A stretch of DNA of 58,709 nt. Source: Polyangiaceae bacterium. GTDB lineage: Bacteria; Myxococcota_A; Polyangia; Polyangiales; Polyangiaceae. Below are positions 4,315-47,979 of the stretch, one piece after another; positions within the stretch are counted from its first letter, which is position 1, and each line of letters starts with the position of its first letter. The stretch covers positions 1 to 58,709 of the forward strand of contig JADLFU010000262.1 in NCBI GenBank assembly GCA_020849655.1, in the 5' to 3' direction. Position numbers and translations under genes: made by a program. The notes beneath the pieces are model-generated. The model saw only the letters and a list, made by a program, of their open reading frames with translations, did not search any database and had not been told where the DNA came from.

Positions 4315-4490
4315 GCGTCCCCCGAGGCGTAGCGGACGAGCAGCGCCGCGATGGCTGACTCGATGGTCGAGCCCACGGCCGCGCGTCCGCCGGTCCACAC
4401 GAGCCACGTGCCGCGCCGCTGGTGTGCGTGCAGCGGGAGCCAGCCGGGGGCGCGGAGAGCGGCGTTCAAGGTAACGAGCGCGTCCGTCAC
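4311..4490 (-). CDS. Small hypothetical protein
   Basis: 59 residues from a GTG that overlaps the DnaQ-like gene stop as GTGA. Tryptophan-containing middle (GWLPLHAHQRRGTWLVW) and an Ala-rich helical end. The track-length frame extends upstream, but the coupled GTG is the better start. Function unknown. Confidence 0.55.
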   Translation of the reverse strand: MTDALVTLNAALRAPGWLPLHAHQRRGTWLVWTGGRAAVGSTIESAIAALLVRYASGDA

Positions 4491-20176: not shown

Positions 20177-20733
20177 CGCATCGCGACCGACGCAACGAGC
20201 GCGTCGGGGTCGTCCCACTTCGCGTGGATCTCGACGACGTCGCGCCGGTCGACGCCGTGTCTGCGCAGGTGATCGTCCACGTCCGACGCCCCGAGCCCGC
20301 TGGCGATCACGATGCGCGTCGCGGCCGCCTGCCCGGCCTCGCGCCGCTCGTTCTCGCGCGCGCGATCGGAGTCGCGGATCGTCGCCACAAGCGACGCGCC
20401 CGACCCGTCGCGCATGTCGAGGTCGATCACCGCCACGTCCCACGCGCGCGCCTCGATCGCGTGCCGCGCGTCGCCGATCGTTGGGCAGAGCAGCGCGTCG
20501 AATTGGCGCGCGAGCAGTCGGAGATAGGTGCGGCCGGTGAGCGCGTCGTCCTCGACGATCAGCACCCGGAGGCGAGCGCCGCCGCCGCGCACGACGCGCA
20601 TCGACTGCGCCTTGCGACCGGGCGCCGGTCTCGACGGGCGCGCGCAGACTTGCGCGATCCGCTCGTGACTCTCGCGCAGCATGGCGTTGGCGCGCATGAG
20701 ATCCGCCCGCAACGTGTCGATCTCCCGCCTCAT
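20173..20733 (-). CDS. CheY-like response-regulator receiver protein
   Basis: 186 residues. Residues 1-35 are a helical, coiled-coil-like start. Residues 55-184 form a receiver domain: VLIVEDDALTG (acidic E61, D62, D63), WDVAVIDLDMRDGSG (phospho-acceptor D104), IVIASG (S145) and HAKW (K172). All residues needed for phosphorylation are present. No output domain is attached. It lies in the lysis cassette, coupled by ATGA to a membrane coiled-coil gene. It could sense host phosphorelay state or mimic a host receiver; both are inference. Confidence 0.8.
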   Translation of the reverse strand: MRREIDTLRADLMRANAMLRESHERIAQVCARPSRPAPGRKAQSMRVVRGGGARLRVLIVEDDALTGRTYLRLLARQFDALLCPTIGDARHAIEARAWDVAVIDLDMRDGSGASLVATIRDSDRARENERREAGQAAATRIVIASGLGASDVDDHLRRHGVDRRDVVEIHAKWDDPDALVASVAMR

Positions 20734-21044
20734 CGACGGCTCGCTTTCGGTCCGGCCGGCGTGCGATCTTCCCAGCGCTCGACGCGCTCGTGCAGGCGCT
20801 CGATCTGCTCGTCGTGCTGGTCCAGTCGCTCGGCGTGGACCGCGGTCGTCGTCGTGACCTTCGCGAGCGTCTCGGCCGTCGGCGCGTGCGCCGTGAGCGT
20901 CTCGCGCAGGGTCTCGACGTGCTTGCGCTGGTCGGCGCGCCCCTCGCGGTAGAGGTAGGCGATCGCGCCCGCGAGCGTGCCGAGGGCGGCCACGAGCGCG
21001 CCGCCGGCACCGACGGCGATCCATGTGCTGATCGTCTCGGGCAT
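20730..21044 (-). CDS. Membrane-anchored coiled-coil protein
   Basis: 104 residues. Transmembrane helix near residues 8-32 (WIAVGAGGALVAALGTLAGA), then a coiled coil (about 40-95) with heptads such as LDQHDEQIERLHERVERWED. Good GAGGAG Shine-Dalgarno. Shape of XhlA-like haemolysin/lysis accessory proteins or of an i-spanin. Confidence 0.6.
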   Translation of the reverse strand: MPETISTWIAVGAGGALVAALGTLAGAIAYLYREGRADQRKHVETLRETLTAHAPTAETLAKVTTTTAVHAERLDQHDEQIERLHERVERWEDRTPAGPKASRR

Positions 21045-21333: not shown

Positions 21334-21648
21334 TCACATGCTCCGCACGGCCTGCGCGACGTCGAACATGAGGCGCGTCGTGCCGTCGGTTTGGTAGAGC
21401 ACCGTGCGCCCGTCGGACAGCACGATCTCGCAGAGCCAGCGGCCGTGCTCGTCCAGGTCGAGCGCGATGAACGTGTACGCCACCGTGTCGGCCGCGTCGC
21501 TCACCACGCCGGTCCACGACACCTGCGTGCCCGAGCGCGGCTTCACCGCGCGAATGGTGGCGGTCACGGCGAGCGACGTGGGGACCGGGAGCTGGAACGT
21601 CAGCGTGTCGCCGTAGCTCCACTGGTTGAACGTCGGGATCGTGGCCAT
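21334..21648 (-). CDS. Beta-rich structural/tail-fibre-associated protein
   Basis: 104 residues. NQWSYGDTLTFQLPVPTSLA, RAVKPRSGTQVSWTG, YTFIALDLDEHGRWLCEIVL, DGRTVLYQTDGTTRLMFDV: an immunoglobulin-like strand order close to the N-terminal domain of baseplate upper-protein-like phage tail proteins. Follows the repeat fibre gene, so probably a virion protein of the tail tip. Confidence 0.55.
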   Translation of the reverse strand: MATIPTFNQWSYGDTLTFQLPVPTSLAVTATIRAVKPRSGTQVSWTGVVSDAADTVAYTFIALDLDEHGRWLCEIVLSDGRTVLYQTDGTTRLMFDVAQAVRSM

Positions 21649-21660
21649 GCGCCCTCGCGA

Positions 21661-23409
21661 TCAGGCGGTGGAGATCGTGGTGGAGCGGGACGCGGCGGCA
21701 GTGCTGACCGATGCGGAGCCAGAGGCGGCGGCGGGCACGGTCGCGGAGCGGGAGGAGGCGCCGGTCGGCACCGATTGGCTCCGGGTCCACACGAGCTGCA
21801 GCAACACGGTCGATGTCGCCGAGAGCGCCGCTGGCTCGACGACGCCAGCTAGCGACGGCGACAGGACCGCCGAGGTCGCCGAGAGCGAACTGGGCTCGAT
21901 GACGACGAGCACCTCGACGCTCGGAACGGCAGACGTCGAGGCGAGGGCGCCCGCGTCGACGACCCCGACGATCGTAGGCCCGCCGAGCGCAACGATCGTC
22001 GCGAGCGCGCCGGGCGTCACGTCGCCGGCGAGCGACGGCGAGAGAACTTCGGCCGTGCTCGATAGCGCACCCGGTTCTGCGACACCACCGGACGCGATGT
22101 CGGGCACGGTCGAGGACGAGGCGAGGGTGCCGGGGCCAACCGTCGCGGTGATGGCCGGACCACCGACGCCCACGGTGGAGTCGGCGGCGTCCGGCGCCGT
22201 CGTGCCCGCCAGATCGACGCTCGGGACGACAGCGGTCGAGGCGAGGGCGCCGAGATCGCTGACGCCGCCGACATCAGGCGGGCCGAGGCTCGCCGTGGAC
22301 GCGAGGGTGCCGGGTTCCACGCTCGCAGCGAGCGTGGGCCCCTCGATCGCGGCTGCGCTGGCCAGCGCACCGATGTCAGCAGATCCAGACAGCGACGGCG
22401 ACGACGCCGAGGACGAGGCAGCGAGCGCGTCCGGGGAGATCCGCACCTGCACATCGACGTCACCCAGCGCGGACGACGACGCGGTTGCGCCGGGCTCCAC
22501 GACGCCCGTCAGCGCGGGAGCGCCGAGGCTCGATGTCGTCGCGAGCGCGCCGGGCTCCACGTTTCCGACGATCGTGGGACCGCCGAGCGAGGAGACGGCG
22601 GCGGTCAACTCGGGCGCGAGGATCCCCGACAGGGACGGCGCGCCAAGGCTCGAGGTGGAGGCGAGGGCGCCGACTGCCACCGCGCCCACGATGGTCGGGC
22701 TTGGGATGCTCGACGTCGACGCGAGCGCCCCGGGCTCCGCGGTCGCAGTGAGCGTGGGGCTCGGGGTGGTGGACGTCGACGCGAGCGCGCCCGGCGCGAC
22801 GAGCATCGCGATCGTGGCGGAGAACTCGACCCACGGACGATCGTCCGTGGTGGTCGTCGAATCCTCGGGCAGATCGGACCCGCTCGTTGGGTCGCCCCAT
22901 CGCCCTTCGGCCTCCGGCGTCGTGCCGGCAGCGTCCAGGTAGCCGAACACGACCACGAGGCGATCGCCGGACTGGACGTCTACGTTCGTCAGGGTGTCGC
23001 CATTCGCCCACGGGTAGTTCCGCAGCGTGGCCAGAGCCGTCAGTTCGGCGGAGCCGGCATACTGCCCGGCGGCGAGCAACGTTCCCCGTACCGAGGATCC
23101 GTCGTTGGTGACGACGTAGACCTCGAACCGAGACCAGACGTTGTCGCTGCTGGCGTTCTCGCGCGCCCTGACCTGCGCCTTGACGGTGCCGCTGATCGTC
23201 TGAGCCGCGAGCGGCTCAGAGACGTACCGACGATCGAGCCCCGTCGAGCCTGCAGACCACGCGCCGATGCGCGTGCCGGTCGCCATCGCGTCGCCGCCGG
23301 GAGTCCCGCGGAGCGCGTAATTGCCGGCCTCCGACGTGTAGCCCCAGGCCCCGTTCGCAGCGGGCGTCACGGCCGCTGCCGTGTTGCTCAGGTAGAACCG
23401 CGACGCCAT
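21661..23409 (-). CDS. Repeat-containing tail fibre-like protein
   Basis: 582 residues. Residues 1-200 form a globular beta-rich head (FYLSNTAAAVTPAANGAWGY, SRFEVYVVTNDGSSVRGT, PWVEFSATIA) of the kind found at the start of phage minor tail proteins. Residues 206-545 are 17 consecutive units of exactly 20 residues, consensus P-G-A-L-A-S-T-S-x-x-x-x-P-x-(L/I/V)-x-G-x-x-x. A Ser/Thr/Ala-rich tail of 37 residues follows. The strict period without any insertion suggests a regular beta-solenoid or trimeric rod. Likely host-contacting fibre. Confidence 0.7.
   Translation of the reverse strand: MASRFYLSNTAAAVTPAANGAWGYTSEAGNYALRGTPGGDAMATGTRIGAWSAGSTGLDRRYVSEPLAAQTISGTVKAQVRARENASSDNVWSRFEVYVVTNDGSSVRGTLLAAGQYAGSAELTALATLRNYPWANGDTLTNVDVQSGDRLVVVFGYLDAAGTTPEAEGRWGDPTSGSDLPEDSTTTTDDRPWVEFSATIAMLVAPGALASTSTTPSPTLTATAEPGALASTSSIPSPTIVGAVAVGALASTSSLGAPSLSGILAPELTAAVSSLGGPTIVGNVEPGALATTSSLGAPALTGVVEPGATASSSALGDVDVQVRISPDALAASSSASSPSLSGSADIGALASAAAIEGPTLAASVEPGTLASTASLGPPDVGGVSDLGALASTAVVPSVDLAGTTAPDAADSTVGVGGPAITATVGPGTLASSSTVPDIASGGVAEPGALSSTAEVLSPSLAGDVTPGALATIVALGGPTIVGVVDAGALASTSAVPSVEVLVVIEPSSLSATSAVLSPSLAGVVEPAALSATSTVLLQLVWTRSQSVPTGASSRSATVPAAASGSASVSTAAASRSTTISTA
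21775..22794 (-). repeat. Seventeen 60-bp coding repeats
   Basis: Degenerate in-frame repeats of 60 bp (17 units, 1020 bp) that encode the 20-residue units of the fibre-like protein. Units typically start at PGALA or a variant (PGTLA, VGALA, PELTA, PDALA, PAALS). Sequence has drifted but length has not, which points to selection on the protein period. Confidence 0.85.
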
Positions 23410-23452: not shown

Positions 23453-23680
23453 CTAGCCGCGCCCGTTCACGCTGGCGCGCGATGAGAGCGGTCCGGCTCC
23501 GACGGTCGTGCCGATGTGCTCGATGAGTTGTGCGGGCGTCATGCCTGCGGCCGAGGCTGCCCGCTCGATGCGCTCGAGCGCCGAGAGCTCCTCGGCCAGC
23601 GGACGAATCTGAGCGGCGAGCGCCGCTCGCTCCGCGTTCAGGCGGGCGAGCTCGGCGCGAACGATGTCGATGCGGGTCAT
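23453..23680 (-). CDS. Small coiled-coil protein
   Basis: 75 residues: IVRAELARLNAERAALAAQI RPLAEELSALERIERAAS is a clear coiled coil, then MTPAQLIEHIG. ATGA overlap with the upstream gene. May be a virion or assembly factor of the fibre region. Confidence 0.55.
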   Translation of the reverse strand: MTRIDIVRAELARLNAERAALAAQIRPLAEELSALERIERAASAAGMTPAQLIEHIGTTVGAGPLSSRASVNGRG

Positions 23681-24129
23681 GTCTGGCTCCTCCGAGCGGC
23701 GATCGAGGCCGCGTGGTCACAGGGTCCGGCCGGCAACGTGGTGGCGAACACGCCCGGTGGCGGCAACTGCACCGACGAGCGCACGCCGCCAGGGAGAGCG
23801 CGCCGCAGCTCGCGGTTGTGCGCCGCCTCTTTCGCGGCCTCGTCGAGGATGCGCGGGTCGGCCGTGAGACCGACGCGCAATCGCGTTTCGCGCCCGGCGC
23901 CATCGACGAACGGGATCCCGTCGGCACGGAGCAGGAGTGCGTGATCGAGCGCGACGGCCTCGGCCTTCGCGGTCTCCTCTGCACGAGCGGCCGCGGCGAT
24001 CAACACGCGCCCGATGGCGCGGGCTTGCTCCCACGGCATGAGAGCGTGCATGCCTCCGATGGCGAGATGCACGCGCGGGCCCTCATCGCTCACCGCGATC
24101 CGCTGCGTCTTCGGCGTGATCACGTCCAT
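23677..24129 (-). CDS. Hypothetical tail-region protein
   Basis: 150 residues (MDVITPKTQRIAVSDEG...; a GTG two codons later gives a GTGA overlap). Helical middle with GMHALMPWEQARAIGRVLIA and alternating Ala/Arg/Glu helices, Pro-rich C-terminus. No known family. Its neighbours are virion proteins. Confidence 0.5.
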   Translation of the reverse strand: MDVITPKTQRIAVSDEGPRVHLAIGGMHALMPWEQARAIGRVLIAAAARAEETAKAEAVALDHALLLRADGIPFVDGAGRETRLRVGLTADPRILDEAAKEAAHNRELRRALPGGVRSSVQLPPPGVFATTLPAGPCDHAASIAARRSQT

Positions 24130-24521
24130 GTGAAGATCCCGGTCGCGTGCCACGCCACCGTTCTGTTGCCGCCGTCCGGCGTGAACGGAAGCCCGGTCCC
24201 CGTGTCGATGTAGACGAACAGGGGGGACGTGCCGGCGGCACCCGAGTCGTAGTAGATGTTGATCGACTCGACCGTCGCGCCGGTGACGCCCGACACCGTC
24301 TCGTCCGCCGCGTCGAACGTCCCTCCCGTCGTCGTCTTCGACGACAGGTTGCCGGACGTGGCGATCGTGCCGGCGGAGATGTCGTCCAGGAAGTCGTCGG
24401 TCGTCGTGTTCGGCGTGTCGGCGCCGTGATCGGTGAACACGAACTTGATGTTCGATGCGCTGATGTCGATGTCGGCGTCGAGGAACTTCTTCTTGCCGAT
24501 CGTGTAGAGGGCGTTGGCCAT
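24120..24521 (-). CDS. Phage tail-associated structural protein
   Basis: 133 residues. MANALYTIGKKKFLDADIDI, then NIKFVFTDHGADTP, DDFLDDISAGTIATSG and FVYIDTGTGLPFTP. This start and the 'xxFLDDIsa' block belong to a family seen in many siphovirus tail regions. Beta-rich, about usual family length. Probably a virion component near the tail tip or fibre. Confidence 0.7.
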   Translation of the reverse strand: MANALYTIGKKKFLDADIDISASNIKFVFTDHGADTPNTTTDDFLDDISAGTIATSGNLSSKTTTGGTFDAADETVSGVTGATVESINIYYDSGAAGTSPLFVYIDTGTGLPFTPDGGNRTVAWHATGIFTWT

Positions 24522-25820: not shown

Positions 25821-26557
25821 GCGGACGTCACATCTTTCGCCGCATAGGCGGCTCCACGGACGTAGACGCCGTGCAGCTCGGGCGTACCGGCCGAGCCTCC
25901 GGTGAAGCCGCCATACAGATCGAGCGTGAGCATCGGGACCGCAATGGGCTCCCAGTCGTCGGGCGTGCCGATGCCAGCCTGCCGTTGCCACGACACGAGG
26001 CCGACGGGCTCGCGAGGATCGAGCTGCATGATGCCGTACATCTCGGAGGCCGAGAGCACGCCATCGACCTCGGTCTCGGTGAGCGACGCCGACGTGAATG
26101 CCGCTTGGCCGACGTTCCATCCGTCACGCAGCCCGGGCCCGGGGATCGGCCAGGGCGAGGACGGCTCGGCGCTGTAGGGCCGCAGGTGCGCCCGGATGTA
26201 GAAGTTGTTGTGTCCCGCGTCGGCTTTCTTCGCCGCGATCCTCACCCGCACGGGCTCGGGGCGGCCGTCGGGCAGCATGCGGCAGATCCAGGAGAACGAG
26301 CGTAGGTGTGTGAATGCGTCGTTGCCGGCCTTGCTGCCGGTCGCCGAAGACGTGAACGAGATCGCCGTCTGCGCCGACGGGGTGAGGAAGTTGACGTAAT
26401 GCTGGCCCTGCGAGAGCCAGAGGTGGCCGAGGCTCGACGCGAGCTCGTCGTGCGCCAGGAAAGAGGACAGTGGCCGGTCGGGATCCGTGGCGTCGAGGTC
26501 GGTGTGCCCGCGCACGTAGTAGTCGGTCCTCGAGATCGGGACTCGCGGTCGCGCCAT
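25817..26557 (-). CDS. Tail-tip/structural protein
   Basis: 246 residues, beta-rich, with TDYYVRGHTDLDATDPDRPL, NFLTPSAQTAISFTSSATGS and VPMLTLDLYGGFTGGSAG. The C-terminal half resembles parts of the neighbour at 24642-25820 in style. No recognised family. Next to the lipoprotein moron, which is divergent. Confidence 0.55.
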   Translation of the reverse strand: MARPRVPISRTDYYVRGHTDLDATDPDRPLSSFLAHDELASSLGHLWLSQGQHYVNFLTPSAQTAISFTSSATGSKAGNDAFTHLRSFSWICRMLPDGRPEPVRVRIAAKKADAGHNNFYIRAHLRPYSAEPSSPWPIPGPGLRDGWNVGQAAFTSASLTETEVDGVLSASEMYGIMQLDPREPVGLVSWQRQAGIGTPDDWEPIAVPMLTLDLYGGFTGGSAGTPELHGVYVRGAAYAAKDVTSA

Positions 26558-26604
26558 GGCTACCCTACGGGGGCCGCGGCGAGGGCCGGGCGGAGGATGA
26601 GGGG

Positions 26605-27111
26605 ATGAAACTCGGGAGCGTGTTGCTGGGGCTCGTGGTGGTGGCGGTGGCGGGGTGTACGAGCGGAGGCGGCGTCAACCCGGGCGACCCTCTGCCATGT
26701 GACCTGCCGTGCGGGCCGGGCGGCTACGAGTGCCGCTTCGGGGATCTCTTCGTCCAGCGCGGCGAGCTCCAGCCCGACGGCCGTACGCCATGCCCTGGCG
26801 ACTCGTGCTCCGGCCAGGACGGCGTGGACGATTACGCGTGCTGCGACGTCTCGAGCGTGGAGATGTTCCTCGCGGCGGGAGCCGCGAACCCGTGGGCGCT
26901 CGGGTGCCACCCGACAGAGCCGGTTCCATGCCCCGGCGGCGCGTGCGAGTGCATGACCGAGGAGAACTGCGAGGCGGGCGAGGCGTGCCTGGAAGATCCC
27001 GGCACCTTCAACACGTTTTGCGCGCGGTCGTGCACGGACGATGGCGACTGCGACGCGCTCGACTTCTGCGGCTCCACCACGGTCGGCGGCTTCTGCCTGC
27101 CGCGCGAGTAG
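26605..27111 (+). CDS. Cysteine-rich lipoprotein (moron)
   Basis: 168 residues. MKLGSVLLGLVVVAVAGCTS is a lipoprotein signal with lipobox VAGC at residues 15-18. Then a Gly linker and a Cys-rich exported domain: CDLPCGPGGYECRF, CPGDSCSGQDGVDDYACC, ACECMTEENCEAGEACLEDP, CARSCTDDGDCDALDFCG. The DGDC...DxC pattern is common in myxobacterial surface proteins. GGAGG Shine-Dalgarno 9 nt upstream. It runs against the surrounding leftward tail genes, with stops touching at TAGCTA, the mark of a moron. Possible role: superinfection exclusion or lysogenic conversion. Confidence 0.8.
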   Translation: MKLGSVLLGLVVVAVAGCTSGGGVNPGDPLPCDLPCGPGGYECRFGDLFVQRGELQPDGRTPCPGDSCSGQDGVDDYACCDVSSVEMFLAAGAANPWALGCHPTEPVPCPGGACECMTEENCEAGEACLEDPGTFNTFCARSCTDDGDCDALDFCGSTTVGGFCLPRE

Positions 27112-29850
27112 CTACGCCCCCCAAACCTGCGCGGGATCGTTGCTCGTTCCGAGCAGCTTCCCCGAGTCCGCAATGAAGGCGTACTGCAGCTGCGTCGCGG
27201 CGTTGTCGCCCGCCTCGCACGTGTCGTAGTCGTCGTACTCCATGATCCAGCGGGTGCCGGCTGCGTTGAAGTCGGTGGCAGGCGTGTCCACGACGTAGAT
27301 GTAGTGATTCGTCGTGTCGATCGAGCTGATGACGAACGACTCCTCCACGACGGCCGTGATGTAGTCGATGCGCCGGACGATGATGCGGTCACCCGCCGCG
27401 AAGCGCGTGTAGTCCGCGGCGTCCGAAGGCGAGTAGACGGCCTCGTTCCGCATCGTGAGACGACGGTTGCCGGTGCCGCCCATTGGCGAGCTCGCGGCGA
27501 GCTTCGCGGCTGGGCTGTAGGCCGTCGCGTTCCAGTCGGTGAGCATCACCCAGAGGTCCACGTACGCGCCGCCCCACGCGACGCGGCGGCCGACGATCTG
27601 CCCCTTGGCCGTCACGAGCCCGCGCACGCCCTTCCACACCATGCGGGCATCGGTGATGGACACCATCTGGCCGAGCAGCGCGTCGGCGAGCAGCAGGCCG
27701 GGGCAACGCGAGAACATCGCGATCCCGTACGGGTACGCGTAGATGTGGCACAGGCTCTTCGCGACGCGCGCTCGGAAGTCGAGATCCGTGAGGTCAGTCT
27801 GGAGCTCGGTGCCGCGCGGCTCGATCGTCAGCCGCTGCTTGCCGAAGTGCTCCCAGCTCGCGGGCATGCTCGCCGCGCCGATGAGGTTGTCGTACTCCTC
27901 GGTCTCGGCGTTCCATCCGCCGCGCACCTCGACGATGTTGATGACGCCGTCGGGCTGGATCGAGAGCGTCGGCGTGAGGGCCGGCCCATTGGTCGATTCG
28001 TCGATCGTGACGCTCGCGAGAACGGCGCCCGATGCAACCGAGATCGCGACGAGCGTGATGAGCCCCGCCGCGGTCGTCGCCCAGCACAGCCCCATTGCGA
28101 TGAGCTCGGGCGACACCATCTCGCGGAGGGAGCCCGCGCGGCGAATGCGCCACTCCTTCGCGAACGCGTCGCCGCCCGCGCCCATCACGACGCGCTCGAT
28201 GTCGGCCCAATCGAACTCGGCGGATGGGAAGTAGGGCGTGACGCCCGACGTGCCGCTCGCCGGCGTGGCGTCGGCGATGGCCTTGAGCCATGTGTCGAGC
28301 CGCTGGCGCTCGAAGACCAGCACAGGGGAGAACTCGACCGGCGCATCGTGCCAGCCGTAGTAGCGAATGGACTCCAAGCTACCGCGCAGCACGTCGTGAT
28401 CGGTCGCGCGCCGGCCCACCGTCAGGTAGCCCGCGCCGTCGTCGAGCACCGAGAAGTACGTCCCTCCGCTGCGGGACTCGAACCCGAAGGGCGGCGGTCC
28501 CATGAGTTCGGTGACGGCATCGGCCGAGATGGACTCGTCTCCGTGATAGATGCGATTCGGCGGGTTCGTCGCGGCCGAGCCGTCCTCAGGAATCAGCGTG
28601 AGGCTGCGCGACCGGATCACGGTCGCGGCATCGGGAAATTCGTCGCGCTCCCAGCGCGTGCGCCCGGGCTCGGGGATGACGGTGTACGTCATCGCTCCGG
28701 CGACGCCCGTGAGCGAATCGACCCATTCGCCGTCTTCGTCGATTAGGTAGCAAATGTCCTCGCTCGGACACCCCGGCATCAAGCAATAGACGTTGACCCA
28801 TCGCGGATCGCCAGCCTCGCCCGCGCCAGTGCGGAACTGCACGATCAGCTGATTACCGTTCCCGATCGATGCGCTGTAGCCGATGTTGACCGGGGTTGCG
28901 GACCACGAGGCGCTCGACGGCTGGATCGCGGCGTTGATGGCCTGCACAAGCGCGTCACGCGTGCCGTAGCGCCCGACGATCTCGATGTTGCACTGCGCCG
29001 TGACGTCGCGGGTTGCAGCAGGCGATTCGGTGGAGTACTCGTCCACCCGGATGCGCAGCGGCTCCTCATCCGGGAAGTAGTACCCGTCGAGCGCGAACGG
29101 CCCGAGCGTCTCGCCGATCTCCTGGTCGAGCAACGCGCTCACATGGTCCATCGTCACGGACCAGCCCATCGCGTCTTCGGTCTGCTCCACGTGCCGCACG
29201 ATGCCGCGCCACACGACGAACGCCTCGGACTCGGCCGTGTCCTCCACGAAGCAGTACAGCTGCGCCCTGCGTCCCTTCACGGCGACGGGCTGATCCGTCA
29301 CCTCGATCGACTCGGGGCGTTCGGCCTCGTAGTTGTGCGTGACGGCGAGCGTGCCGCCGATTCCGCGGTTGCAGTCGATGAACGTCGTACCGCTCCCGAT
29401 GCCGCCGAGTTGGATCATCTCGCGGCCGATGTGGATCTGCTCAGACCCCGACCAACCCGTGGTGCTCGATACCGTGATGGTCGTGCTGGTGTCCGAGAGC
29501 GCGGCCGCGAGCCACGTGCGCTTCGTCGGCACGCGCCCGCCGAAGATGCGTGACGCGGCGTCCTTGGTGACCCCGCTGGCGTCGTCCCGATCGTTCACCA
29601 CGACCGTCAGGGTCGCGGCGTCGAGCGTCGCGGTCTGCCAATCGATCCGCTCCTCGAACGCGTACTCGCCCGCGTAATCGAGACCGTCGACTCCGTACTG
29701 CTCGTCGTTGTCGCCGAGCTCCCACACCATCGACCCGCCCGTAGCGCGGCGAGGGTCGGTGACCGGCATCTCGGGGATACCCTCGATCCGCAGACCGAAC
29801 GCGAGCCGGCAGTTGCCACCATCGGCGATGAGCTCGTCGCGGATCGTCAC
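27112..29850 (-). CDS. Large tail hub/tip protein
   Basis: 912 residues, the largest tail gene after which smaller tip genes follow. N-terminal 100 residues (NCRLAFGLRIEGIPEM, TLDAATLTVVVNDRDD) resemble phage hub/baseplate starts; TTITVSSTTGWSGSEQIHIG and EMIQLGGIGSGTTFIDCNRG are a beta domain typical of tail-tip attachment proteins; the C-terminus carries DRIIVRRIDYITAVVEESFV, another beta unit. Position two genes after the tape measure fits the central tail hub. No hydrolase motif recognised. Confidence 0.65.
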   Translation of the reverse strand: MTIRDELIADGGNCRLAFGLRIEGIPEMPVTDPRRATGGSMVWELGDNDEQYGVDGLDYAGEYAFEERIDWQTATLDAATLTVVVNDRDDASGVTKDAASRIFGGRVPTKRTWLAAALSDTSTTITVSSTTGWSGSEQIHIGREMIQLGGIGSGTTFIDCNRGIGGTLAVTHNYEAERPESIEVTDQPVAVKGRRAQLYCFVEDTAESEAFVVWRGIVRHVEQTEDAMGWSVTMDHVSALLDQEIGETLGPFALDGYYFPDEEPLRIRVDEYSTESPAATRDVTAQCNIEIVGRYGTRDALVQAINAAIQPSSASWSATPVNIGYSASIGNGNQLIVQFRTGAGEAGDPRWVNVYCLMPGCPSEDICYLIDEDGEWVDSLTGVAGAMTYTVIPEPGRTRWERDEFPDAATVIRSRSLTLIPEDGSAATNPPNRIYHGDESISADAVTELMGPPPFGFESRSGGTYFSVLDDGAGYLTVGRRATDHDVLRGSLESIRYYGWHDAPVEFSPVLVFERQRLDTWLKAIADATPASGTSGVTPYFPSAEFDWADIERVVMGAGGDAFAKEWRIRRAGSLREMVSPELIAMGLCWATTAAGLITLVAISVASGAVLASVTIDESTNGPALTPTLSIQPDGVINIVEVRGGWNAETEEYDNLIGAASMPASWEHFGKQRLTIEPRGTELQTDLTDLDFRARVAKSLCHIYAYPYGIAMFSRCPGLLLADALLGQMVSITDARMVWKGVRGLVTAKGQIVGRRVAWGGAYVDLWVMLTDWNATAYSPAAKLAASSPMGGTGNRRLTMRNEAVYSPSDAADYTRFAAGDRIIVRRIDYITAVVEESFVISSIDTTNHYIYVVDTPATDFNAAGTRWIMEYDDYDTCEAGDNAATQLQYAFIADSGKLLGTSNDPAQVWGA

Positions 29851-30678: not shown

Positions 30679-32622
30679 CTACCTCACGCGGATCGGCGTG
30701 CGGATGTTGCGCTGCCGGCGCTCCTGCAGGTCGGAGCGCCGGAGTTGCGTCGCGAGGTGGCGCGGGCCCTCGAGACCGGTACCGGGCGAGAGGATGAACT
30801 GCTGGATCATGGTGGCGGCCGAGCCGCCCGTGTCGCGCACGGCGCCGCCGTTCGCGCGCGCCGTCGAGCCCGAGGATCGGCGTGCTCCGCCGCCTCCGCC
30901 GCTCGCTGCGCTCATGGCGGCAGCTCCGCCGCCTGCGAGAACTGCGACGGCCGCGTAGGTGCCGGCTGCCGCGAACGCCGCAGCGGCGCCGTCATACTTC
31001 ATGGTGGCGGTGAGGAAGAGGCCCTCGGCCGTCGCGAGCAGCGCCTTGACGGTCGCCTCGGTGGCGATGGTCGTCAGCGTCTGCGAGAGGATGCCGGCGA
31101 GCGCCTGGCCGATGGACTGTTCGCCCGCGACCCATGCGGCAACGTTGCTCTCGATGGCGCCCTGGAGAGCTCCGAGCGCGCCGACGCCGGTGTTTTTCAG
31201 CGCCTCGAGCGCGCCGCCGTATTTCTGCGCCGCTTCGGTCTGACGCGCGAATGCCGAAACCTGCTGCGATGCGTTCCGAGCGCCGCCGAGATTGCCGCGC
31301 CCGCCGGTGCCGCGGCCTTCGGCGTTGAACCCGGGCGCGACGTCGCGATTGCGGTCGGCGCGGTCCTCGTCGTCGGTGATCCCGAAGAGCCCACCGCTGC
31401 GGCGCTCGTCCTCTTCGGCGCGCTGCCGAGCTTCCTCAAGCCGATCGATGAACCGATCGACAGAGTCGATGATCCCGTTGAGCGCTTCCTCAATCGTCTG
31501 GCGGTCGCGCGCGCCGCCTCCTCCGCCGCCACGGCGGCGCTGCGTCGGATCGAATGACTCGGTTCCGAAGAGCAACGCGCCCTGTCCGCCGTCGGAGAGC
31601 AGGCCGCGCGCGGTGGCGATCCGCCTCTGCTGTTCGGCGTACTCTGCTCTGTTGCGCGGCCTGCCGTAATCCGTGCTGGTGTCCGTGACGCTGAGAGCCC
31701 CTCCGGCGCGACCCTCGACGAACACGTCGTCACTGACCCGGAAGTTGGCGACCTGCCGCTGGACGCCCAGCAGGCCGCGGATCTGCGCCGTGAGCCGACC
31801 GACTTCCTGCCCAATGAACGGGAGCGCGTTCGCGAAATTCTCGGCCGCGTCGGCGAGGCCGTGGAAACCGGATGACGCATCTCCCGTCGCCGCCGTGAGT
31901 CGCGCGACCTCGACCGGGAGCTTGACGATCTCCAACAGCAGCTTGTGCGCCGCCGCGATGGTATCGACGATCCCCGCCTCAAGCGTGCCGAGCTTCTCTT
32001 TGCCCGTGTCCCACGCAGCACCAGCACGGTCCCACGCGCCGGTGTTGCGCTCGATGTTCTCCGTGTTAGCCGACAGAGCGCTCGACAGTTGGCGGATGGC
32101 TTCCGCCGTGCCCTCGGCCCCCGTCTGTCCCTCGCGGAGTGCAATCCCGAAGGGACGCAGCCCGCGCGCATTGCCGGCCACGAGAGCGCCCGTGAGTTGC
32201 GCGAGGGCCGACGCGCCGTCGGTACCCGTGCGCATCGCGAAGACCTGCGCGGCGGCAGACACGGCAGCGAACTGCTCGTCCGTGACTCGAATGTTTGCCG
32301 CGAGGAGTCGATTCTCTGCGCCCGCAAGCGCCATCGCGGGGATGAGCCCTTGGGTGACGTCCCGCGCCGCCTCAATGGAGCGCCCGCCGAGTTGTGCGAG
32401 CATATCGTTGAGGACATCGCCCTGGTCGATCAGCTCCTTGACCTCTGCAGCGACCTTGAGGAATCCGGCGGCGGCGAGCGCGTCCTTGAGCCCCCCAATC
32501 CCGCCCGCCGAATCCTCAGCCGACTTGCCGAGCTTGCCGGCCGATTCGCCGACCTTATCGAGCTCGCCCGCGGCAGCGCTGGCGCCCTCGACCTGGACGC
32601 GGATCCCGATGTCAGACGACAT
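30679..32622 (-). CDS. Tape measure protein
   Basis: 647 residues. Ala-rich helical N-terminus with coiled-coil character (GELDKVGESAGKLGKSAEDS), TAAVSAAAQVFAMRTG-type helices, a charged middle (RFIDRLEEARQRAEEDERRS), then hydrophobic helices near the C-terminus (AAFAAAGTYAAVAVLAGGGA) and a Gly-rich tail. Located right after the G/GT chaperones. Its length would predict a tail of roughly 100 nm using the usual ~0.15 nm per residue rule. Confidence 0.85.
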   Translation of the reverse strand: MSSDIGIRVQVEGASAAAGELDKVGESAGKLGKSAEDSAGGIGGLKDALAAAGFLKVAAEVKELIDQGDVLNDMLAQLGGRSIEAARDVTQGLIPAMALAGAENRLLAANIRVTDEQFAAVSAAAQVFAMRTGTDGASALAQLTGALVAGNARGLRPFGIALREGQTGAEGTAEAIRQLSSALSANTENIERNTGAWDRAGAAWDTGKEKLGTLEAGIVDTIAAAHKLLLEIVKLPVEVARLTAATGDASSGFHGLADAAENFANALPFIGQEVGRLTAQIRGLLGVQRQVANFRVSDDVFVEGRAGGALSVTDTSTDYGRPRNRAEYAEQQRRIATARGLLSDGGQGALLFGTESFDPTQRRRGGGGGGARDRQTIEEALNGIIDSVDRFIDRLEEARQRAEEDERRSGGLFGITDDEDRADRNRDVAPGFNAEGRGTGGRGNLGGARNASQQVSAFARQTEAAQKYGGALEALKNTGVGALGALQGAIESNVAAWVAGEQSIGQALAGILSQTLTTIATEATVKALLATAEGLFLTATMKYDGAAAAFAAAGTYAAVAVLAGGGAAAMSAASGGGGGARRSSGSTARANGGAVRDTGGSAATMIQQFILSPGTGLEGPRHLATQLRRSDLQERRQRNIRTPIRVR

Positions 32623-41186: not shown

Positions 41187-42431
41187 TCAGGCCGTGATCA
41201 GCTCGGAGGCACGCGCGACCGCGAGCTCGGAGCCGAGCTTGTAACCGCCGTACCACTTCACGCGCTGGATCTTGGCGTCCGCCGTGAGGCGGCTGCCGAG
41301 CTGCTCGACCATGAAGCCGAGAACCGGCGCGGTGCGCGGGTCGCCGTTGACCACGTCGCTCTCGTTGCCGACGCAGAACGCCGAGAAGCCGGGGCCCGGC
41401 GTCATGCTCACGAGCACGACGCTCGACAGCGTGGTGGCCGCGCCCTTCGCCTCGGTGCTCGCGATGTTGTCGTTCCGCAGGATGGGGATCCCGCGGTACG
41501 TCGGCACGCCCGAGCCGTAGCCCGGCAGCCGGACGTGATCGGGGTTCGCTCCGCCGAGCGCGCGGCACGCCGCGAAGTACTTGCGCATCAGCGTCCCGTT
41601 CATGATGAACACCAGATCGGTGTCCACCTTCACGGTGTCGATCAGCGCGTCGAGCGTCGCGAACGTGAAGGCGTCGCCGTCGGCGCCCGAGCTCGCGATG
41701 AGCTGCGTGCCGGACGGGTTGATGAACTTGAAGATCCCGTCCGGGTCGTTGGTCGACGCCGTGAACGTGATCTCCGCCGTGCCGTTCTCGTCGGCGTCGG
41801 ACACGTCGAGCGTCACGCGGATCCGCTTGTTCGGGTTGATCGACGCGAGCGTGTAGCTCCCGTCGGACGCACACGCGACGGCGGTGCCGTAGGCGTCGTC
41901 GCCCGGCGCCTTGTACTCGAGCAGAGTGCCGGCGTGCGTGTAGCGCAGGTAGCCCACGCCGAAGCGCGTCGAGTCGGTGAACGGCGACGCGTACACGAGC
42001 GTGTCGACGTAATCGCCGTTCCAGCCGACGGGGCGCGCGATGGTGAAGCCGTCGGCGAACGAGCCCGTGATCGCCTTCGTCGCGAGCGTGCGGCCCGCCT
42101 GGCGGATCTTCGCCGCGAGCTGCACGCCCATGTTGTTCTGGTTCGGCAGCACGGCCGCGAGCCCAGGGACGTCCACGTCCGCCGCGAGCGTGCGCGTCAG
42201 GGCCGTGACCTTCTCCCACGTCGCGCTGGACTCCGAGACGGTGCCGCTGTTGGCCGCGATGAACGCAGCCGAGCCGAGCGACAGCTCGCGGTTGTAGACG
42301 ATGCTCTCCCCCGCTCCGCCCTCGAAGGCGAGCATCGCGAAGAACGCGTCGTAGGTGATGAGGGACTTGAACATCCCTCTCGGCAAGTCGCGATTGGTCG
42401 CGCGCATTGCCTGCTCGAGCGTGAGCGCCAT
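41187..42431 (-). CDS. Major capsid protein with inserted beta domain
   Basis: 414 residues. HK97-like traits: N-terminal helix, LAFEGGAGESIVYNRELSLG, TVSESSATWEKVTALTRTLA as E-loop region, DLVFIMNGTLMRKYFAACRA, YRGIPILRNDNI in the P-domain, and GFMVEQLG...WYGGYKL ending. Between about residues 165 and 245 an extra segment (GSYTLASINPNKRIRVTLDV; GTAEITFTASTNDPDGIFKF) looks like an inserted immunoglobulin-like or insertion domain. Strong CACAGGAG Shine-Dalgarno. Position after the scaffold gene fits. Confidence 0.85.
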   Translation of the reverse strand: MALTLEQAMRATNRDLPRGMFKSLITYDAFFAMLAFEGGAGESIVYNRELSLGSAAFIAANSGTVSESSATWEKVTALTRTLAADVDVPGLAAVLPNQNNMGVQLAAKIRQAGRTLATKAITGSFADGFTIARPVGWNGDYVDTLVYASPFTDSTRFGVGYLRYTHAGTLLEYKAPGDDAYGTAVACASDGSYTLASINPNKRIRVTLDVSDADENGTAEITFTASTNDPDGIFKFINPSGTQLIASSGADGDAFTFATLDALIDTVKVDTDLVFIMNGTLMRKYFAACRALGGANPDHVRLPGYGSGVPTYRGIPILRNDNIASTEAKGAATTLSSVVLVSMTPGPGFSAFCVGNESDVVNGDPRTAPVLGFMVEQLGSRLTADAKIQRVKWYGGYKLGSELAVARASELITA

Positions 42432-42481: not shown

Positions 42482-43201
42482 CTATTGGCGGATCGGTTCC
42501 GCCAGCCCCGCTGCGAGCATCGCGGCGGGGTCTGCGTCGTCGGGGAGGCGGGCGCCTTTGCCGGGTCCGCCATTGGGGCGGTGCGCGCCGGAACCGCCGC
42601 CGGGGTGCTGCTGGAAATGCGGATTCGCCGTCAGCCAGGCGCCGGCTGCGTCTGCGAGATCCTTGCGAGCCACACCGTCGAATCGAACGGCCGTGATTCG
42701 CCCGTCTTCGTCCGTGTCGATCTCGACCTCGGAGCGGAATGCGGGAATCGCGTGCTTGAGCACGCCCGGCAATGCCTTCGCGGCTGCGAGCGCGTCGCCG
42801 ACCTCGCGCGAGACGTTCGCCTCGACACGTCGGCGCTCTGCGGTCTCCGCTTTGCCGCGCCATTCGTCGCGCTCTTTCGCGAGCGCCGCTTCCCGGTCGG
42901 CGATTGCCTTCGCGGCGCGCTCGGCGTCTTTGCGCGCCTTCTCGGCGGCCGAGAGCTTCTCGTCTTCGAGCGCCTGCAATCGCGTGGTGAGCGAATCGAA
43001 TTCGGCGAGCTTCGCCTTGCTCGATTCGACCTCCGCCTTGACGGCCGCGAGTTCCTTCTCTTTCGAGGCGAGCCGCTGGCCCATCATCCGGTCGATGTCG
43101 GCTTGGGTGTACGTCTTCTCGGCTGGTGCGGTGCCTGCGGCAGACGCAGCTCCGCCCGCTGCCGCTCCCTCGTCGGGGGCGCAGTAGATGCGCGGGTACA
43201 T
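42482..43201 (-). CDS. Capsid scaffolding protein
   Basis: 239 residues. Acidic N-terminus, TYTQADIDRMMGQRLASKEK, then a long coiled coil (about 60-140) and a C-terminal RITAVRFDGVARKDLADAAG, AWLTANPHFQ, Gly-rich tail. The 'TYTqadvDrliagRLare' start plus coiled coil is the hallmark of HK97-type scaffold proteins. ATG at 43201 has AGAGG 8 nt upstream. Confidence 0.85.
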   Translation of the reverse strand: MYPRIYCAPDEGAAAGGAASAAGTAPAEKTYTQADIDRMMGQRLASKEKELAAVKAEVESSKAKLAEFDSLTTRLQALEDEKLSAAEKARKDAERAAKAIADREAALAKERDEWRGKAETAERRRVEANVSREVGDALAAAKALPGVLKHAIPAFRSEVEIDTDEDGRITAVRFDGVARKDLADAAGAWLTANPHFQQHPGGGSGAHRPNGGPGKGARLPDDADPAAMLAAGLAEPIRQ

Positions 43202-43264
43202 GGATTGTCCTCTCCGGTTCGGGCGAATGCCCACGGCTCCGGGGGCCGCTGTCTCCGCGATTGG

Positions 43265-44798: not shown

Positions 44799-46478
44799 TC
44801 ACGCCGGCGGCGCGGCGGGTTGTCCGTTGGGCGGCGTATTCCCCGCCTGATTCACCGGCGGATTGCCGGGGCGATTGCCGGGCCGACCGAATGGCGAGGG
44901 GCGCGCCGCCGCCTCCGCATTGGCCTGCGCGAGCTTCACGGCCGACGCCTGCTGCTCGAGCTTCGCGGCTGCGGCGTCCTCGAGATCCTCGTCGATCTCG
45001 CCGCGCGTCTCGTCGTCCAGGTTCGAGAGCAGGCGGCCCACGAGCCGACGCTTGATCTCGGTCTCGGCCGTCACGCCGAGCGACAGCGCGAGGGCGGCGG
45101 TGGCCTGGTCGATCTCGCCCTGCAGGTCCTCGACGTCGAAGCTCTCGGGCGGCGTGATGCGGGCGCCGTCGCGCACCGTGTCGCCGAGTCCGAGCGTGAT
45201 GCCCGTCAGGTCGAGCACGTCCTCCCACCACCGAGAGACCTGCAGCGCGAAGTCGTGGATCGCACGATTCGTCTGGGCGAACTCGTACGCTCGCGCGACG
45301 CCCGACGTGGCGGACGCGACGCCGCGCGAGAACTCGGCACGCGCCAACCGATAGAGCTCCGTGACGGTCGCCGTGATGACGTCGTTGTACGTTGCGATCA
45401 CCGACGCGGGCGGCGCGATGAACGCGGGCGCCGGCCACTCGTGGTGGTACTCGATGACGTTGGTGGTGCCGATCGGCGCGGTGGTGCCTGCGGCTGCTCG
45501 CGTCGGATCGGGCACGGAGCCCTTGAAATCCTGCGCCTGCGTCAAGAGCGCGAACACCTGCCCGCGTAGCGACTCGTCACGCTCGGACAGCAGGTTGAAC
45601 AACCGCCGCGCGAGGATCGCGACGTCGGCGTGCATCGGGATCCCGCGCAGCGCGTCGTCGGGGCTCGGCGAATGCCGGAGAATCGCGAGAGGCACGCGGC
45701 CCCAGCTGTGCGGAACGCCGGCCTCGTCCTCGCTCGCCGAGGCGTTGCCGTCGCGAGTCCGCACCGTCCAGCGCGACCAGACGGTGCGTGTCCAGACCGT
45801 GTACGTCTCGACCGGCGTCAATTCGTCGCGCCACGAATCGCGCTCGTGTGAGTCGGTGCGAATCTTGACCCAGTCAAGTTGGCCGTCGGTGCCGAGCTGC
45901 CAATCGACGATGTTCGCGGGGAAGAGCGGAATCAGCCGCGGGGAGGCAATCCCGGCGGCGCGCGCCTGCGCGGTGGAGATCGTGCCGCCGCCCGAGGGGC
46001 CGCGCGGCGCGTCTACGAGGCACGGGCACCATCCGAGGACCGCGGCGCGCAGCACGATGGACGGCAGCAGCTCGCGCCACGTCGTGCCCGCGCCGTCCGT
46101 GTCGTCGTACCAGTCGGCCCACGCGTCGTCGCCCGCGCGGTCGAACGGCTTGCGGAGCAAGAACGAGAGCTTCAGGTCGGTGAGAGTCCTGACGTAGCCG
46201 GGGTAATGGGCGACCTGTTTGCGGCCGTCGAATTTCTTCGGCGTCTCGCGCGGGAATCGATCGAGGTAGGTCTCGTCGTCGGTCGGCGGCTGATAGGCTG
46301 CGCTCGTCTGTCGCGTCGTCGTCGAGCCGATGCTGCCGAAGGGTCCGGGGTCGGCGGGGCGGATGCGGCCGGCGAATCCGCCGCCACCCGTGTAGCTGTC
46401 GAGCGCGAACCGATCGGCCACGACGCTCGCGAGGTAGTCGGACCGCGTGCGGCGCAGCTGCTCGAGGAGATCCGCCAT
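44799..46478 (-). CDS. Portal protein
   Basis: 559 residues. ETPKKFDGRKQVAHYPGYVR near the start, WRELLPSIVLRAAVLGWCPC, LIPLFPANIVDWQLGTDGQL, GRVPLAILRHSP, FNLLSERDESLRGQVFALLT and a helical stem (ITATVTELYRLARAEFSRGV), with a Pro/Asn-rich tail. Matches phage portal proteins of the SPP1 type in length and order, next to the large terminase. Confidence 0.8.
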   Translation of the reverse strand: MADLLEQLRRTRSDYLASVVADRFALDSYTGGGGFAGRIRPADPGPFGSIGSTTTRQTSAAYQPPTDDETYLDRFPRETPKKFDGRKQVAHYPGYVRTLTDLKLSFLLRKPFDRAGDDAWADWYDDTDGAGTTWRELLPSIVLRAAVLGWCPCLVDAPRGPSGGGTISTAQARAAGIASPRLIPLFPANIVDWQLGTDGQLDWVKIRTDSHERDSWRDELTPVETYTVWTRTVWSRWTVRTRDGNASASEDEAGVPHSWGRVPLAILRHSPSPDDALRGIPMHADVAILARRLFNLLSERDESLRGQVFALLTQAQDFKGSVPDPTRAAAGTTAPIGTTNVIEYHHEWPAPAFIAPPASVIATYNDVITATVTELYRLARAEFSRGVASATSGVARAYEFAQTNRAIHDFALQVSRWWEDVLDLTGITLGLGDTVRDGARITPPESFDVEDLQGEIDQATAALALSLGVTAETEIKRRLVGRLLSNLDDETRGEIDEDLEDAAAAKLEQQASAVKLAQANAEAAARPSPFGRPGNRPGNPPVNQAGNTPPNGQPAAPPA

Positions 46479-46488: not shown

Positions 46489-47979
46489 TCAGAGGTCGTC
46501 GATCACGCGGTTGCGGTAGCCGGACGTCACGACCGGCGCTCGAAACACGGCGAGTCCAAGGGCATCCGCTCGGTCGGGGCTGCGCCCCAGCCGCGCCTTC
46601 GTCTTCGCTTTCGGCTCGACCACGTAACGGCCACTCGTGTCGAATGCGTAGAGGGGCGCGACCAGTTCGCCGTGCAATCGCCCATCGTCAGGGATCGCTC
46701 CGCCATCGCGAAGCCAGTCGCGCGTGGCAAACCACACCTGGTCGCGCATGCGGTGGTAAAGGTCACTCGTCGGCGCGCTCTCGGCCGCGTTCACGCCCAC
46801 CGCCACGAGTCGGGCGGTCCCGCCACCCTTCGCGAGCTTCACCGAGTCACGACGGCGCAGCGTGTCCAGCACGCCAGCACCGATCCCGATCTCGTCCACC
46901 TGGACTCGGATCGTCTCGCCGTCGCGCGCGAGCTCCGAGCACGTCGCGAGCACCTGCCCGGCAACGTCCACCGTGTCCATGGAGCGCAGCGTGCGGATTG
47001 CGTGAGCGCGCTTCCCGCGCACCGGCGCAATGCCCGTCTCATCGTCGCCGAAGCGCGCGGGATCCACGCCGATCGAGAGCGGGCCTTCGTCGGGTGTCGT
47101 CGCGTGACGCGCGGTCGCCGCCTGCACGAGCCCGAGCCCGATGATCGCGTTCTCGCTCTGCTCGGGGAAATTGCCCCGGACACGCACCTGATAGAGCGGC
47201 GAATCTTCGCCCCATTCGGCGCGTTTCTCGGCGATCCACTCGGCGGTCGCGAGGCCGGGCACGCTGGCCTCGCCCGTGACGTTGGGGCTCTCCTCGCTCG
47301 AGATATGGACTCGATTCCAGAACTCGGCGCGAGCCCCGAACGCGTCGAAGAACGTCCCCGACGTCTGCGTGGGATTGCCCGTCAGAAGCACCCGCGCGCC
47401 GCCCGCGCGGTTGCCCTCGATGGCCTCGAAGATGGCCTCGTCTACGCCGCTCGCCTCATCGACGATGAATAGCAACTCGTCGCCCGAGAAGCCTTGCAGC
47501 CGCTCTGCTTCGTCGGTCGCGAATCCGATGATGAACCGGCCGTCCGGGAACCGGAGGCCGGTGCTCGGCAACTTCGCGGGCGCGGCGTCGAAGGTGTCCG
47601 GCGGACAGCGAGCGTACATCGCCCGGACTTCGCGCCAGAGGATCTCTTCGACCTGCCGGCCCGTCGGCGCAGTGAGCACAACACCGCCGCGAGAGCGGGT
47701 GTCCGCCCACCAGTAGGCGATGCCTGCGCAGCTGTTCGACTTGCTAACCTTGTGGCCGCTGCGGACCGCGTTGCGCGGGTGCTGTGCGACGGCCGTTAGC
47801 AGGTCGCGCTGGCGACTCCACGGCTCGATCCGCAGGACGTCGCGGAAGTACCCAACCGGATCGTTTCGATAGCGCGCGCGGTCAGTGGATCGGGATGGCG
47901 TCGGGGCATCCGGCAAGTACTTCGCGAGCCGCTTCTCCAGCCGGTCGAGCTCCTCCAGCGGATCGAGCGAGTCGAGCAT
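46489..47979 (-). CDS. terL: Terminase large subunit
   Basis: 496 residues. Walker-A-like RSGHKVSKSNS near residue 73, VVLTAPTGRQVEEI, Walker B LLFIVDEASG near 170, coupling motif VLLTGNPTQ, and nuclease motif GVDPARFGDDET near 300 with later Asp in LGRSPDRADALGLAVF. The ATPase-nuclease order is complete. The Walker A lacks the usual second Gly (GHKVSKS in place of GHGVGKT). It starts inside the small-subunit gene with a 98-nt overlap. Confidence 0.9.
   Translation of the reverse strand: MLDSLDPLEELDRLEKRLAKYLPDAPTPSRSTDRARYRNDPVGYFRDVLRIEPWSRQRDLLTAVAQHPRNAVRSGHKVSKSNSCAGIAYWWADTRSRGGVVLTAPTGRQVEEILWREVRAMYARCPPDTFDAAPAKLPSTGLRFPDGRFIIGFATDEAERLQGFSGDELLFIVDEASGVDEAIFEAIEGNRAGGARVLLTGNPTQTSGTFFDAFGARAEFWNRVHISSEESPNVTGEASVPGLATAEWIAEKRAEWGEDSPLYQVRVRGNFPEQSENAIIGLGLVQAATARHATTPDEGPLSIGVDPARFGDDETGIAPVRGKRAHAIRTLRSMDTVDVAGQVLATCSELARDGETIRVQVDEIGIGAGVLDTLRRRDSVKLAKGGGTARLVAVGVNAAESAPTSDLYHRMRDQVWFATRDWLRDGGAIPDDGRLHGELVAPLYAFDTSGRYVVEPKAKTKARLGRSPDRADALGLAVFRAPVVTSGYRNRVIDDL

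What the first reader, a model, noticed from the sequence alone, without database searches (positions are those of the whole stretch)
21661..23409. Fibre-like protein with 17 units of exactly 20 residues
1020 bp of 60-bp units that differ in sequence but never in length. This suggests a strict structural period (beta-solenoid or trimeric rod) and a molecular ruler that could lengthen or shorten by recombination between units.
Basis: seen in the sequence. Interest (0 to 1): 0.7.

Follow-up and report, generated by a model that had tools for sequence, protein, structure and literature searches.

The report
Phage fibre-like protein, twenty-residue repeat stalk
A phage carries a probable virion fibre protein made of a sugar-binding-like head domain followed by 17 repeats of exactly 20 amino acids; related phages keep the same head domain and often the same 20-residue spacing while the repeat sequence itself is completely different, which points to an exchangeable stalk with a fixed structural step.

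Summary
ORF 21661-23409 (minus strand, 582 aa) has 17 units of exactly 20 residues (21781-22800), with 16 of 16 spacings equal to 60 bp. First and second codon positions are conserved in register and third positions are saturated, so the motif is old and under selection. The protein is a 203-residue beta-sandwich (AlphaFold pLDDT mostly 80-98; best structural matches are CocE/PepX C-terminal jelly rolls and carbohydrate-binding modules), then the array, then a 39-residue tail. It sits between tail genes and a probable lysis gene of a 58.7-kb phage contig. The array matches, in register, arrays of mycobacteriophage 'minor tail proteins' found in the same slot before lysin A. The head domain occurs in about 20 other viral contigs. 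Eight of twelve arrays there, window included, have period exactly 20 although they fall into about five unrelated motif classes. In one relative the domain is fused to the distal tail protein Dit. Best reading: a tail-associated adhesin or fibre with a CBM-like head on a rigid stalk. The 'ruler changing length by unit recombination' is not supported, because synonymous sites are saturated. Whole-stalk exchange fits better. Solenoid or trimer remains open. New variant of a known kind.

The parts
21661..23409 (-). CDS of the fibre-like protein, 582 aa
   Evidence: open frame with GGAG upstream; N-domain homologues; codon-position pattern
22801..23409 (-). N-terminal domain, residues 1-203, beta-sandwich (jelly-roll/CBM-like)
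   Evidence: AlphaFold pLDDT mostly 80-98; VIA-align Z 12.8 over 156 residues to the C-terminal domain of 8yzo and Z 11.8 to CocE 3puh, CBM29/36/6 Z 6.4-6.8; family alignment A2
21781..22800 (-). Array of 17 units x 20 residues; consensus VePGALASTSsvgsP.l.Gv
   Evidence: 16/16 spacings = 20
21664..21780 (-). C-terminal tail, 39 aa, Ser/Ala/Thr-rich, weak 11-residue periodicity
   Evidence: class autocorrelation z 3.6 at lag 11
21334..21648 (-). Next gene downstream, 104 aa, beta-rich by sequence; only a sub-threshold Ig-like (Big_8) hit
   Evidence: small genes of similar size follow in several relatives, but with no detectable sequence similarity
20730..21044 (-). Small membrane/coiled-coil protein, probable lysis (Rz/holin-like)
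   Evidence: phrog_1009 E 9.5e-5, phrog_739 Rz-like spanin E 7.8e-4
23453..23680 (-). Upstream small gene, 75 aa
   Evidence: weak phrog_686 hit only
24120..24521 (-). Small protein, 133 aa, phrog_644 (function unknown)
   Evidence: E 4.1e-25
27112..29850 (-). 912-aa probable tail-tip/fibre protein
   Evidence: weak PHROG tail fibre hit E 0.0046; position
30679..32622 (-). 647-aa probable tape measure protein
   Evidence: inference from position and sequence; no PHROG or Pfam family above threshold
41187..42431 (-). Major head protein
   Evidence: phrog_212 E 8.2e-28
42482..43234 (-). Head scaffolding protein
   Evidence: phrog_206 E 4.4e-12
44799..46478 (-). Portal protein
   Evidence: phrog_145 E 4.6e-41
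46489..47979 (-). Terminase large subunit
   Evidence: phrog_2 E 1.2e-35

Best explanation
The gene encodes a virion protein of a tailed phage, most likely an accessory fibre or adhesin of the tail tip. Its N-terminal 203 residues form a jelly-roll of the carbohydrate-binding-module type that binds a surface glycan or docks on the virion. The following 17 x 20 residues form an extended beta-structured stalk in which each 20-residue unit is one structural step (two short strands separated by Gly/Pro turns); the short C-terminal tail closes or anchors the stalk. Because the step is fixed, selection removes indels inside units. Phages change stalk length or surface by exchanging whole arrays rather than by adding single units. 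Shown: the array, its selection, the domain fold prediction, the gene slot and homologies. Inferred: glycan binding, extended rod, location in the virion, and which end is distal.
For: Array exact and selected. N-domain fold. Phage structural contig with terminase, portal, scaffold and MCP; the gene lies after the tail module and before a probable lysis gene. The array profile matches mycobacteriophage minor-tail-protein arrays in register: phiT46-1 gp23 and prophiGD03-1 gp72 score +22 and +27, against -63 and -60 (sd 16-17) for column-permuted profiles, 0/1000 each; those genes lie just before lysin A. A blind tblastn of the array alone against 50,697 phage records returns only such M. abscessus phage minor tail proteins, at non-significant E 0.2-0.6. 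PHROG_13352 'minor tail protein' matches the array of relative L006, whose array aligns ungapped with the window's (permutation z 4.2). N-domain fused to Dit in L016 (phrog_33 E 3.5e-13; Pfam SPP1_Dit above cut-off). CBM decorations of Dit, Tal and MTP are an established theme (PMC7291167). Two phages 98% identical across the N-domain diverge abruptly right after it (L032/L033). Charge-hydropathy places the array on the folded side.
Against: No direct virion evidence. In several relatives (L004, L032, Wakanda, MW202601, probably L007) the gene lies near head or connector genes, so head attachment is possible. No PHROG or Pfam family hits the window protein itself. The N-domain also occurs with a putative signal peptide in a WOR-1 MAG and in a large Lentimicrobiaceae protein, so it is not purely phage. 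In the full-length AlphaFold model the array has pLDDT about 30-50.
Confidence: 0.6

Rival explanations
1. Head-attached fibre or decoration: the N-domain binds the capsid and the array projects from the head.
For: In Wakanda, MW202601, L004 and L032 the N-domain gene lies between the major capsid or head proteins and connector genes; Wakanda gp27 is little more than the N-domain.
Against: In the window the gene lies well downstream of the head genes, after the probable tail genes and next to a probable lysis gene; Dit fusion in L016; the array relatives are minor tail proteins.
Confidence: 0.2
2. Trimeric beta-fibre shaft (triple beta-spiral-like) rather than a single-chain solenoid; the N-domain trimerises at one end. 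(A rival about the stalk's fold, compatible with the best explanation.)
For: Two Gly/Pro turns and two short strands per unit resemble shaft repeats in outline; most phage fibres are trimers (general knowledge); the monomer model of the whole protein is not confident in the array.
Against: The 5-unit monomer model is solenoid-like at pLDDT 74 / pTM 0.63; triple beta-spirals usually tolerate variable loop length (general knowledge), whereas here there are no indels.
Confidence: 0.4
3. Flexible low-complexity linker (Ala/Ser/Thr/Gly/Pro) without a regular fold; the repeat is only a spacer.
For: Low-complexity composition with almost no aromatic or basic residues; low pLDDT in the full-length model.
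Against: A linker needs neither exact unit length nor conserved columns; saturated synonymous sites with conserved positions 1 and 2 show selection on each unit; hydropathy on the folded side; recurrence of period 20 in unrelated motifs.
Confidence: 0.15
4. A molecular ruler whose length changes by slippage or recombination between units.
For: Unit number differs widely between relatives.
Against: Fourfold sites near random between units, no recent duplicates; the same in most relatives; motif changes together with length.
Confidence: 0.08

Closest known systems
Mycobacteriophage minor tail proteins with GIASAEAFGTP / VPSRVAVGTP arrays (PHROG_13352 class; Marvin gp88, Kumao gp32, phiT46-1 gp23, prophiGD03-1 gp72)
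   Same: About 20-residue unit with the pattern P-x-[GAST]-[ILV]-[AP]-S-x3-[FLV]-G-x-P in register; in phiT46-1 and prophiGD03-1 the gene also lies between tail genes and lysin A
   Different: There the array is N-terminal, followed by a different C-terminal domain, and unit spacing varies 20/22/23; the window array is C-terminal, strictly 20, and its N-domain is different
N-domain family in viral contigs (L004-L019, L029-L033, L061-L065), Streptomyces phage Wakanda/Muntaha gp27, Manatee Spring phage MW202601
   Same: Homologous N-terminal domain (R4, Y6, W22, D103-G104, R108-G109-T110, D149, G156, W193, E195 invariant in alignment A2)
   Different: C-terminal parts differ: arrays of unrelated motif with period 20, inserted extra domains, Dit, or nothing
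CBM-decorated 'evolved Dit' / BppA CBM of siphophages
   Same: Jelly-roll module of CBM type attached to tail-tip proteins; direct fusion to Dit in relative L016
   Different: Window protein has no Dit part; the domain's best structural match is the CocE/PepX C-terminal jelly roll rather than BppA; CBMs in evolved Dits are inserted in loops, not N-terminal
Triple beta-spiral fibre shafts
   Same: Short repeat with Gly/Pro turns and alternating hydrophobics; stalk role
   Different: 20 residues fixed, no demonstrated trimer, no sequence relation to any solved chain

Membership tests
Mycobacteriophage-type minor tail repeat (PHROG_13352 class) | Unit motif in the same register | tested here: met
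   0/1000 column permutations for three of seven targets, 11 and 17 per 1000 for two, not significant for Marvin and Kumao
Mycobacteriophage-type minor tail repeat (PHROG_13352 class) | Direct match to the PHROG_13352 profile | tested here: not met
   no PHROG hit to the window protein up to E 0.1; relative L006 does hit, E 4.8e-53. So not filed as a PHROG_13352 member, only as the same repeat class
Mycobacteriophage-type minor tail repeat (PHROG_13352 class) | Gene slot between tail genes and lysis genes | tested here: met
   window; phiT46-1, prophiGD03-1. The lysis assignment in the window rests on one weak hit
Carbohydrate-binding-module-like jelly roll (N-domain) | Beta-sandwich jelly-roll fold | tested here: met
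   predicted model, Z 12.8 over 156 residues (8yzo), CBM29/CBM36/CBM6 Z 6.4-6.8
Carbohydrate-binding-module-like jelly roll (N-domain) | Glycan binding | not testable with these tools
   needs binding assay; shared fold shows no function
Evolved Dit | Dit core domain in the same protein | tested here: not met
   no phrog_33 / SPP1_Dit match in the window protein; present in relative L016
Beta-solenoid | Single-chain coil, one unit per turn | tested here: inconclusive
   5-unit model pLDDT 74, pTM 0.63, periodic strands; Z 6.5 to synthetic solenoid 4yc5; known AF2 bias (PMC11795689)
Triple beta-spiral / trimeric fibre | Homotrimeric shaft | not testable with these tools
   no multimer prediction available
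Pentapeptide repeat (20-residue coil of 4 x 5) | Five-residue periodicity | tested here: not met
   lag-5 identity 0.10 vs shuffled 0.12
Collagen-like fibre | Gly at every third residue | tested here: not met
   glycine is 11% of the array and concentrated in unit columns 4, 13 and 19

The most novel reading that the evidence does not exclude
A general plug-in stalk platform: one CBM-like head domain shared by many phages is joined to interchangeable arrays whose sequence motifs are unrelated but whose structural step is held at exactly 20 residues, so that the step length rather than the sequence is what is conserved and exchanged.
Probability: 0.25. Interest if true: 0.6.

Novelty: new variant of a known kind. 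Interest (0 to 1): 0.4.

Why it matters
Phage stalk repeats are usually called low-complexity and left unannotated; the window protein has no Pfam, PHROG or PDB match by sequence. This case links an uncharacterised head domain to tail-tip biology through the Dit fusion. It also connects the window array to a repeat class annotated only as minor tail protein, and shows that the 20-residue step outlives the sequence motif. That makes a testable rule for predicting fibre length and for finding adhesins in uncultured phages, and offers a natural set of unrelated 20-residue repeats for testing structure predictors.

Tried and rejected
Pfam, PHROGs and PDB sequence searches with the window protein gave nothing above threshold (best chance hit for another array E 0.29). 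Search of 194 related genomes with the protein found no relative; a phylum-wide profile search gave only two false matches in wrong frames, L046 and L047. A four-unit array profile found no relative in IMG/VR. The small gene downstream of the fibre gene was considered as a conserved partner, but the copies in relatives have no detectable similarity. L065's C-terminal part was considered as a tail-hub fusion, but no family or similarity to the window's 912-aa protein was found. Pentapeptide and collagen-like repeats rejected. Foldseek of the array model found no significant solved structure (best E 0.77), and VIA Z values of 4-7.5 are in the range of chance. No literature on the motif was found in the open-access library. 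The library used holds no cellular AlphaFold models.

Full report
The observation. The window is a whole 58,709-base contig (C262) of a 6.56-Mb, 307-contig genome. ORF 21661-23409 on the minus strand encodes 582 residues. A profile search places 17 units at residues 204, 224 ... 524, with every one of 16 spacings exactly 20 residues; this is 1020 bp at 21781-22800. Self-identity at lags 20, 40, 60 and 80 is 0.35-0.40, against 0.12 in shuffles with a maximum of about 0.18. The consensus is VePGALASTSsvgsP.l.Gv; the most conserved columns are P3, G4, A5, L6, A7, the hydrophobic 12, P15, hydrophobic 17 and G19. The array is 19% Ala, 16% Ser, 12% Val, 11% Gly, 11% Leu, 10% Thr and 9% Pro, with net charge -21.

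Age and selection. Between units, identity at codon positions 1, 2 and 3 is 0.51, 0.59 and 0.41, while out-of-register comparisons give 0.31, 0.34 and 0.39. At fourfold sites of identical residues identity is 0.416 against 0.375 expected. The units therefore shared DNA long ago, their synonymous sites are close to saturation, and the amino-acid pattern and unit length have been kept by selection. No pair looks like a recent duplicate (best 72% nt identity; longest in-register exact run 20 nt). This weakens the proposal that the array grows and shrinks by recombination between units. The same holds for most relatives; L006 (0.66 vs 0.46) and the small L004 array (0.47 vs 0.33) retain some synonymous similarity.

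The rest of the protein. Residues 1-203 form a domain found in Streptomyces phages Wakanda and Muntaha (gp27), in a Manatee Spring phage, and in about 20 IMG/VR contigs. It also occurs in three bacterial MAG contigs, among them a WOR-1 protein with a putative signal peptide and a large Lentimicrobiaceae protein, so the domain is not confined to phages. AlphaFold gives a beta-sandwich with pLDDT mostly 80-98. The best structural matches are the C-terminal jelly rolls of CocE/PepX-type hydrolases (Z 12.8, 156 residues, 2.9 A) and, lower, CBM29, CBM36 and CBM6 (Z 6.4-6.8). A 39-residue Ser/Ala/Thr-rich tail with weak 11-residue periodicity ends the protein.

Arrays in relatives. The relatives were collected by the N-domain, not by their repeats, so period is an unbiased observable. 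Of twelve arrays examined, counting the window, eight have a dominant period of exactly 20 (window, L005, L006, L007, L009, L012, L032, L040); the others have 21 (L004), 24 (L010), 18 (L011) and 27 (L015). Scanning each unit profile over every other period-20 array, in all phases and with column-permuted controls, finds L007, L012 and L040 related, window and L006 weakly related, and no clear relation otherwise. Column patterns of large hydrophobics and Gly/Pro give the same grouping. So about five motif classes share the period. Unit number runs from none (L061, Wakanda gp27) to more than 25 (L009). The closest relative of the window N-domain (L004, 50% identity) carries a different, 21-residue, roughly five-unit array. 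In L006, L007, L009 and L032 further non-repeat segments lie between N-domain and array. L032 and L033, 98% identical over 4.8 kb including the N-domain, diverge abruptly just after it. These facts fit exchange of whole C-terminal modules.

What the window array is related to. The L006 array (GIASAEAFGTP) matches PHROG_13352 'minor tail protein' and many mycobacteriophage minor tail proteins. The window array aligns with it without gaps over five units. The window profile scores far above permuted profiles on arrays of Mycobacterium phages phiT46-1 gp23 and prophiGD03-1 gp72 (0/1000) and virus Rctr197k (0/1000), weaker on L006 (17/1000) and prophiFSIL01-1 (11/1000), and not significantly on Marvin and Kumao. 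A tblastn of the array alone against 50,697 phage records lists only M. abscessus phage minor tail proteins, though at E 0.2-0.6. Those mycobacteriophage arrays have spacings of 20, 22 and 23, so the strict 20 of the window is at the stringent end of its class, though similar to L006 (mostly 20).

Context and site of action. Terminase, portal, scaffold and major head genes lie at 41-48 kb on the same strand. The fibre gene follows the probable tail genes (24-33 kb) and precedes a probable lysis gene at 20.7-21.0 kb. In phiT46-1 and prophiGD03-1 the array gene is likewise between minor tail genes and lysin A. In L016 the N-domain is fused in one frame to a distal tail protein Dit (phrog_33 E 3.5e-13; Pfam SPP1_Dit above its cut-off). 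CBM modules on Dit, Tal and tail proteins are an established way for siphophages to hold on to host glycans (PMC7291167). Against a purely tail role, the gene lies near capsid or connector genes in Wakanda, MW202601, L004 and L032. I give tail attachment about three times the weight of head attachment.

Structure of the array. The full-length prediction leaves the array unresolved (pLDDT 30-50), but its alignment carried almost no array information. A prediction of five units using the other window units and L006 units as alignment gave pLDDT 74 and pTM 0.63, with a short strand at about unit positions 11-12 and a longer one at about 16-21 in successive units, solenoid-like. The nearest solved structures are a synthetic beta-solenoid, LRR proteins and the SV2C luminal domain at chance-level scores. 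[quoted passage not shown] The fold is therefore open; charge-hydropathy argues against disorder. If solenoidal, 17 turns at about 0.48 nm would be roughly 8 nm; if a triple beta-spiral-like shaft, more than 20 nm (inference).

Verdict. The feature is real and selected. It is most likely a tail-associated adhesin or fibre with a CBM-like head and a 20-residue-step stalk: the same repeat class as mycobacteriophage minor tail arrays, in a different architecture. The unexpected part is that the step of 20 residues persists across phages while the motif does not.

Noticed in passing
window 26542-27111 (+): A Cys-rich predicted lipoprotein gene (lipobox VAGC) on the opposite strand inside the tail module; looks like a moron, no Pfam family.
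   Followed up: partly
window 52292-53107 (-): tRNA-His guanylyltransferase (Thg1, Pfam E 4.5e-29) encoded in a phage contig, although no tRNA gene is found in the window.
   Followed up: no
window 2750-4090, 4487-5149, 53578-55290 (-); 12237-13367 (+): YqaJ/RecE-like exonuclease, RNase T-like exonuclease, DnaB helicase and an integrase-family match just above its cut-off: a possibly temperate phage with its own recombination functions.
   Followed up: no
L032 7488-8267 (+): ORF whose start resembles a caspase/metacaspase fold (NRVALLFAINAYGNGNDLRGCINDVNLAEEKLL) two genes downstream of a repeat fibre gene in a viral contig.
   Followed up: no
L010, L011, L007 C-terminal tails: After the arrays, tails with 10-residue periodicity (class autocorrelation z 7.5, 4.1, 2.9), half of 20; the window tail has 11. 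Possibly a common cap or anchor element.
   Followed up: partly
L032 / L033 around 4775 of each locus: Two nearly identical viral contigs switch to different sequence directly after the shared N-domain of the fibre gene, as expected for a receptor-binding region.
   Followed up: partly
L038, L039: The same N-domain occurs with a putative signal peptide in a WOR-1 MAG and in a large Lentimicrobiaceae protein, so it also serves outside phages.
   Followed up: no
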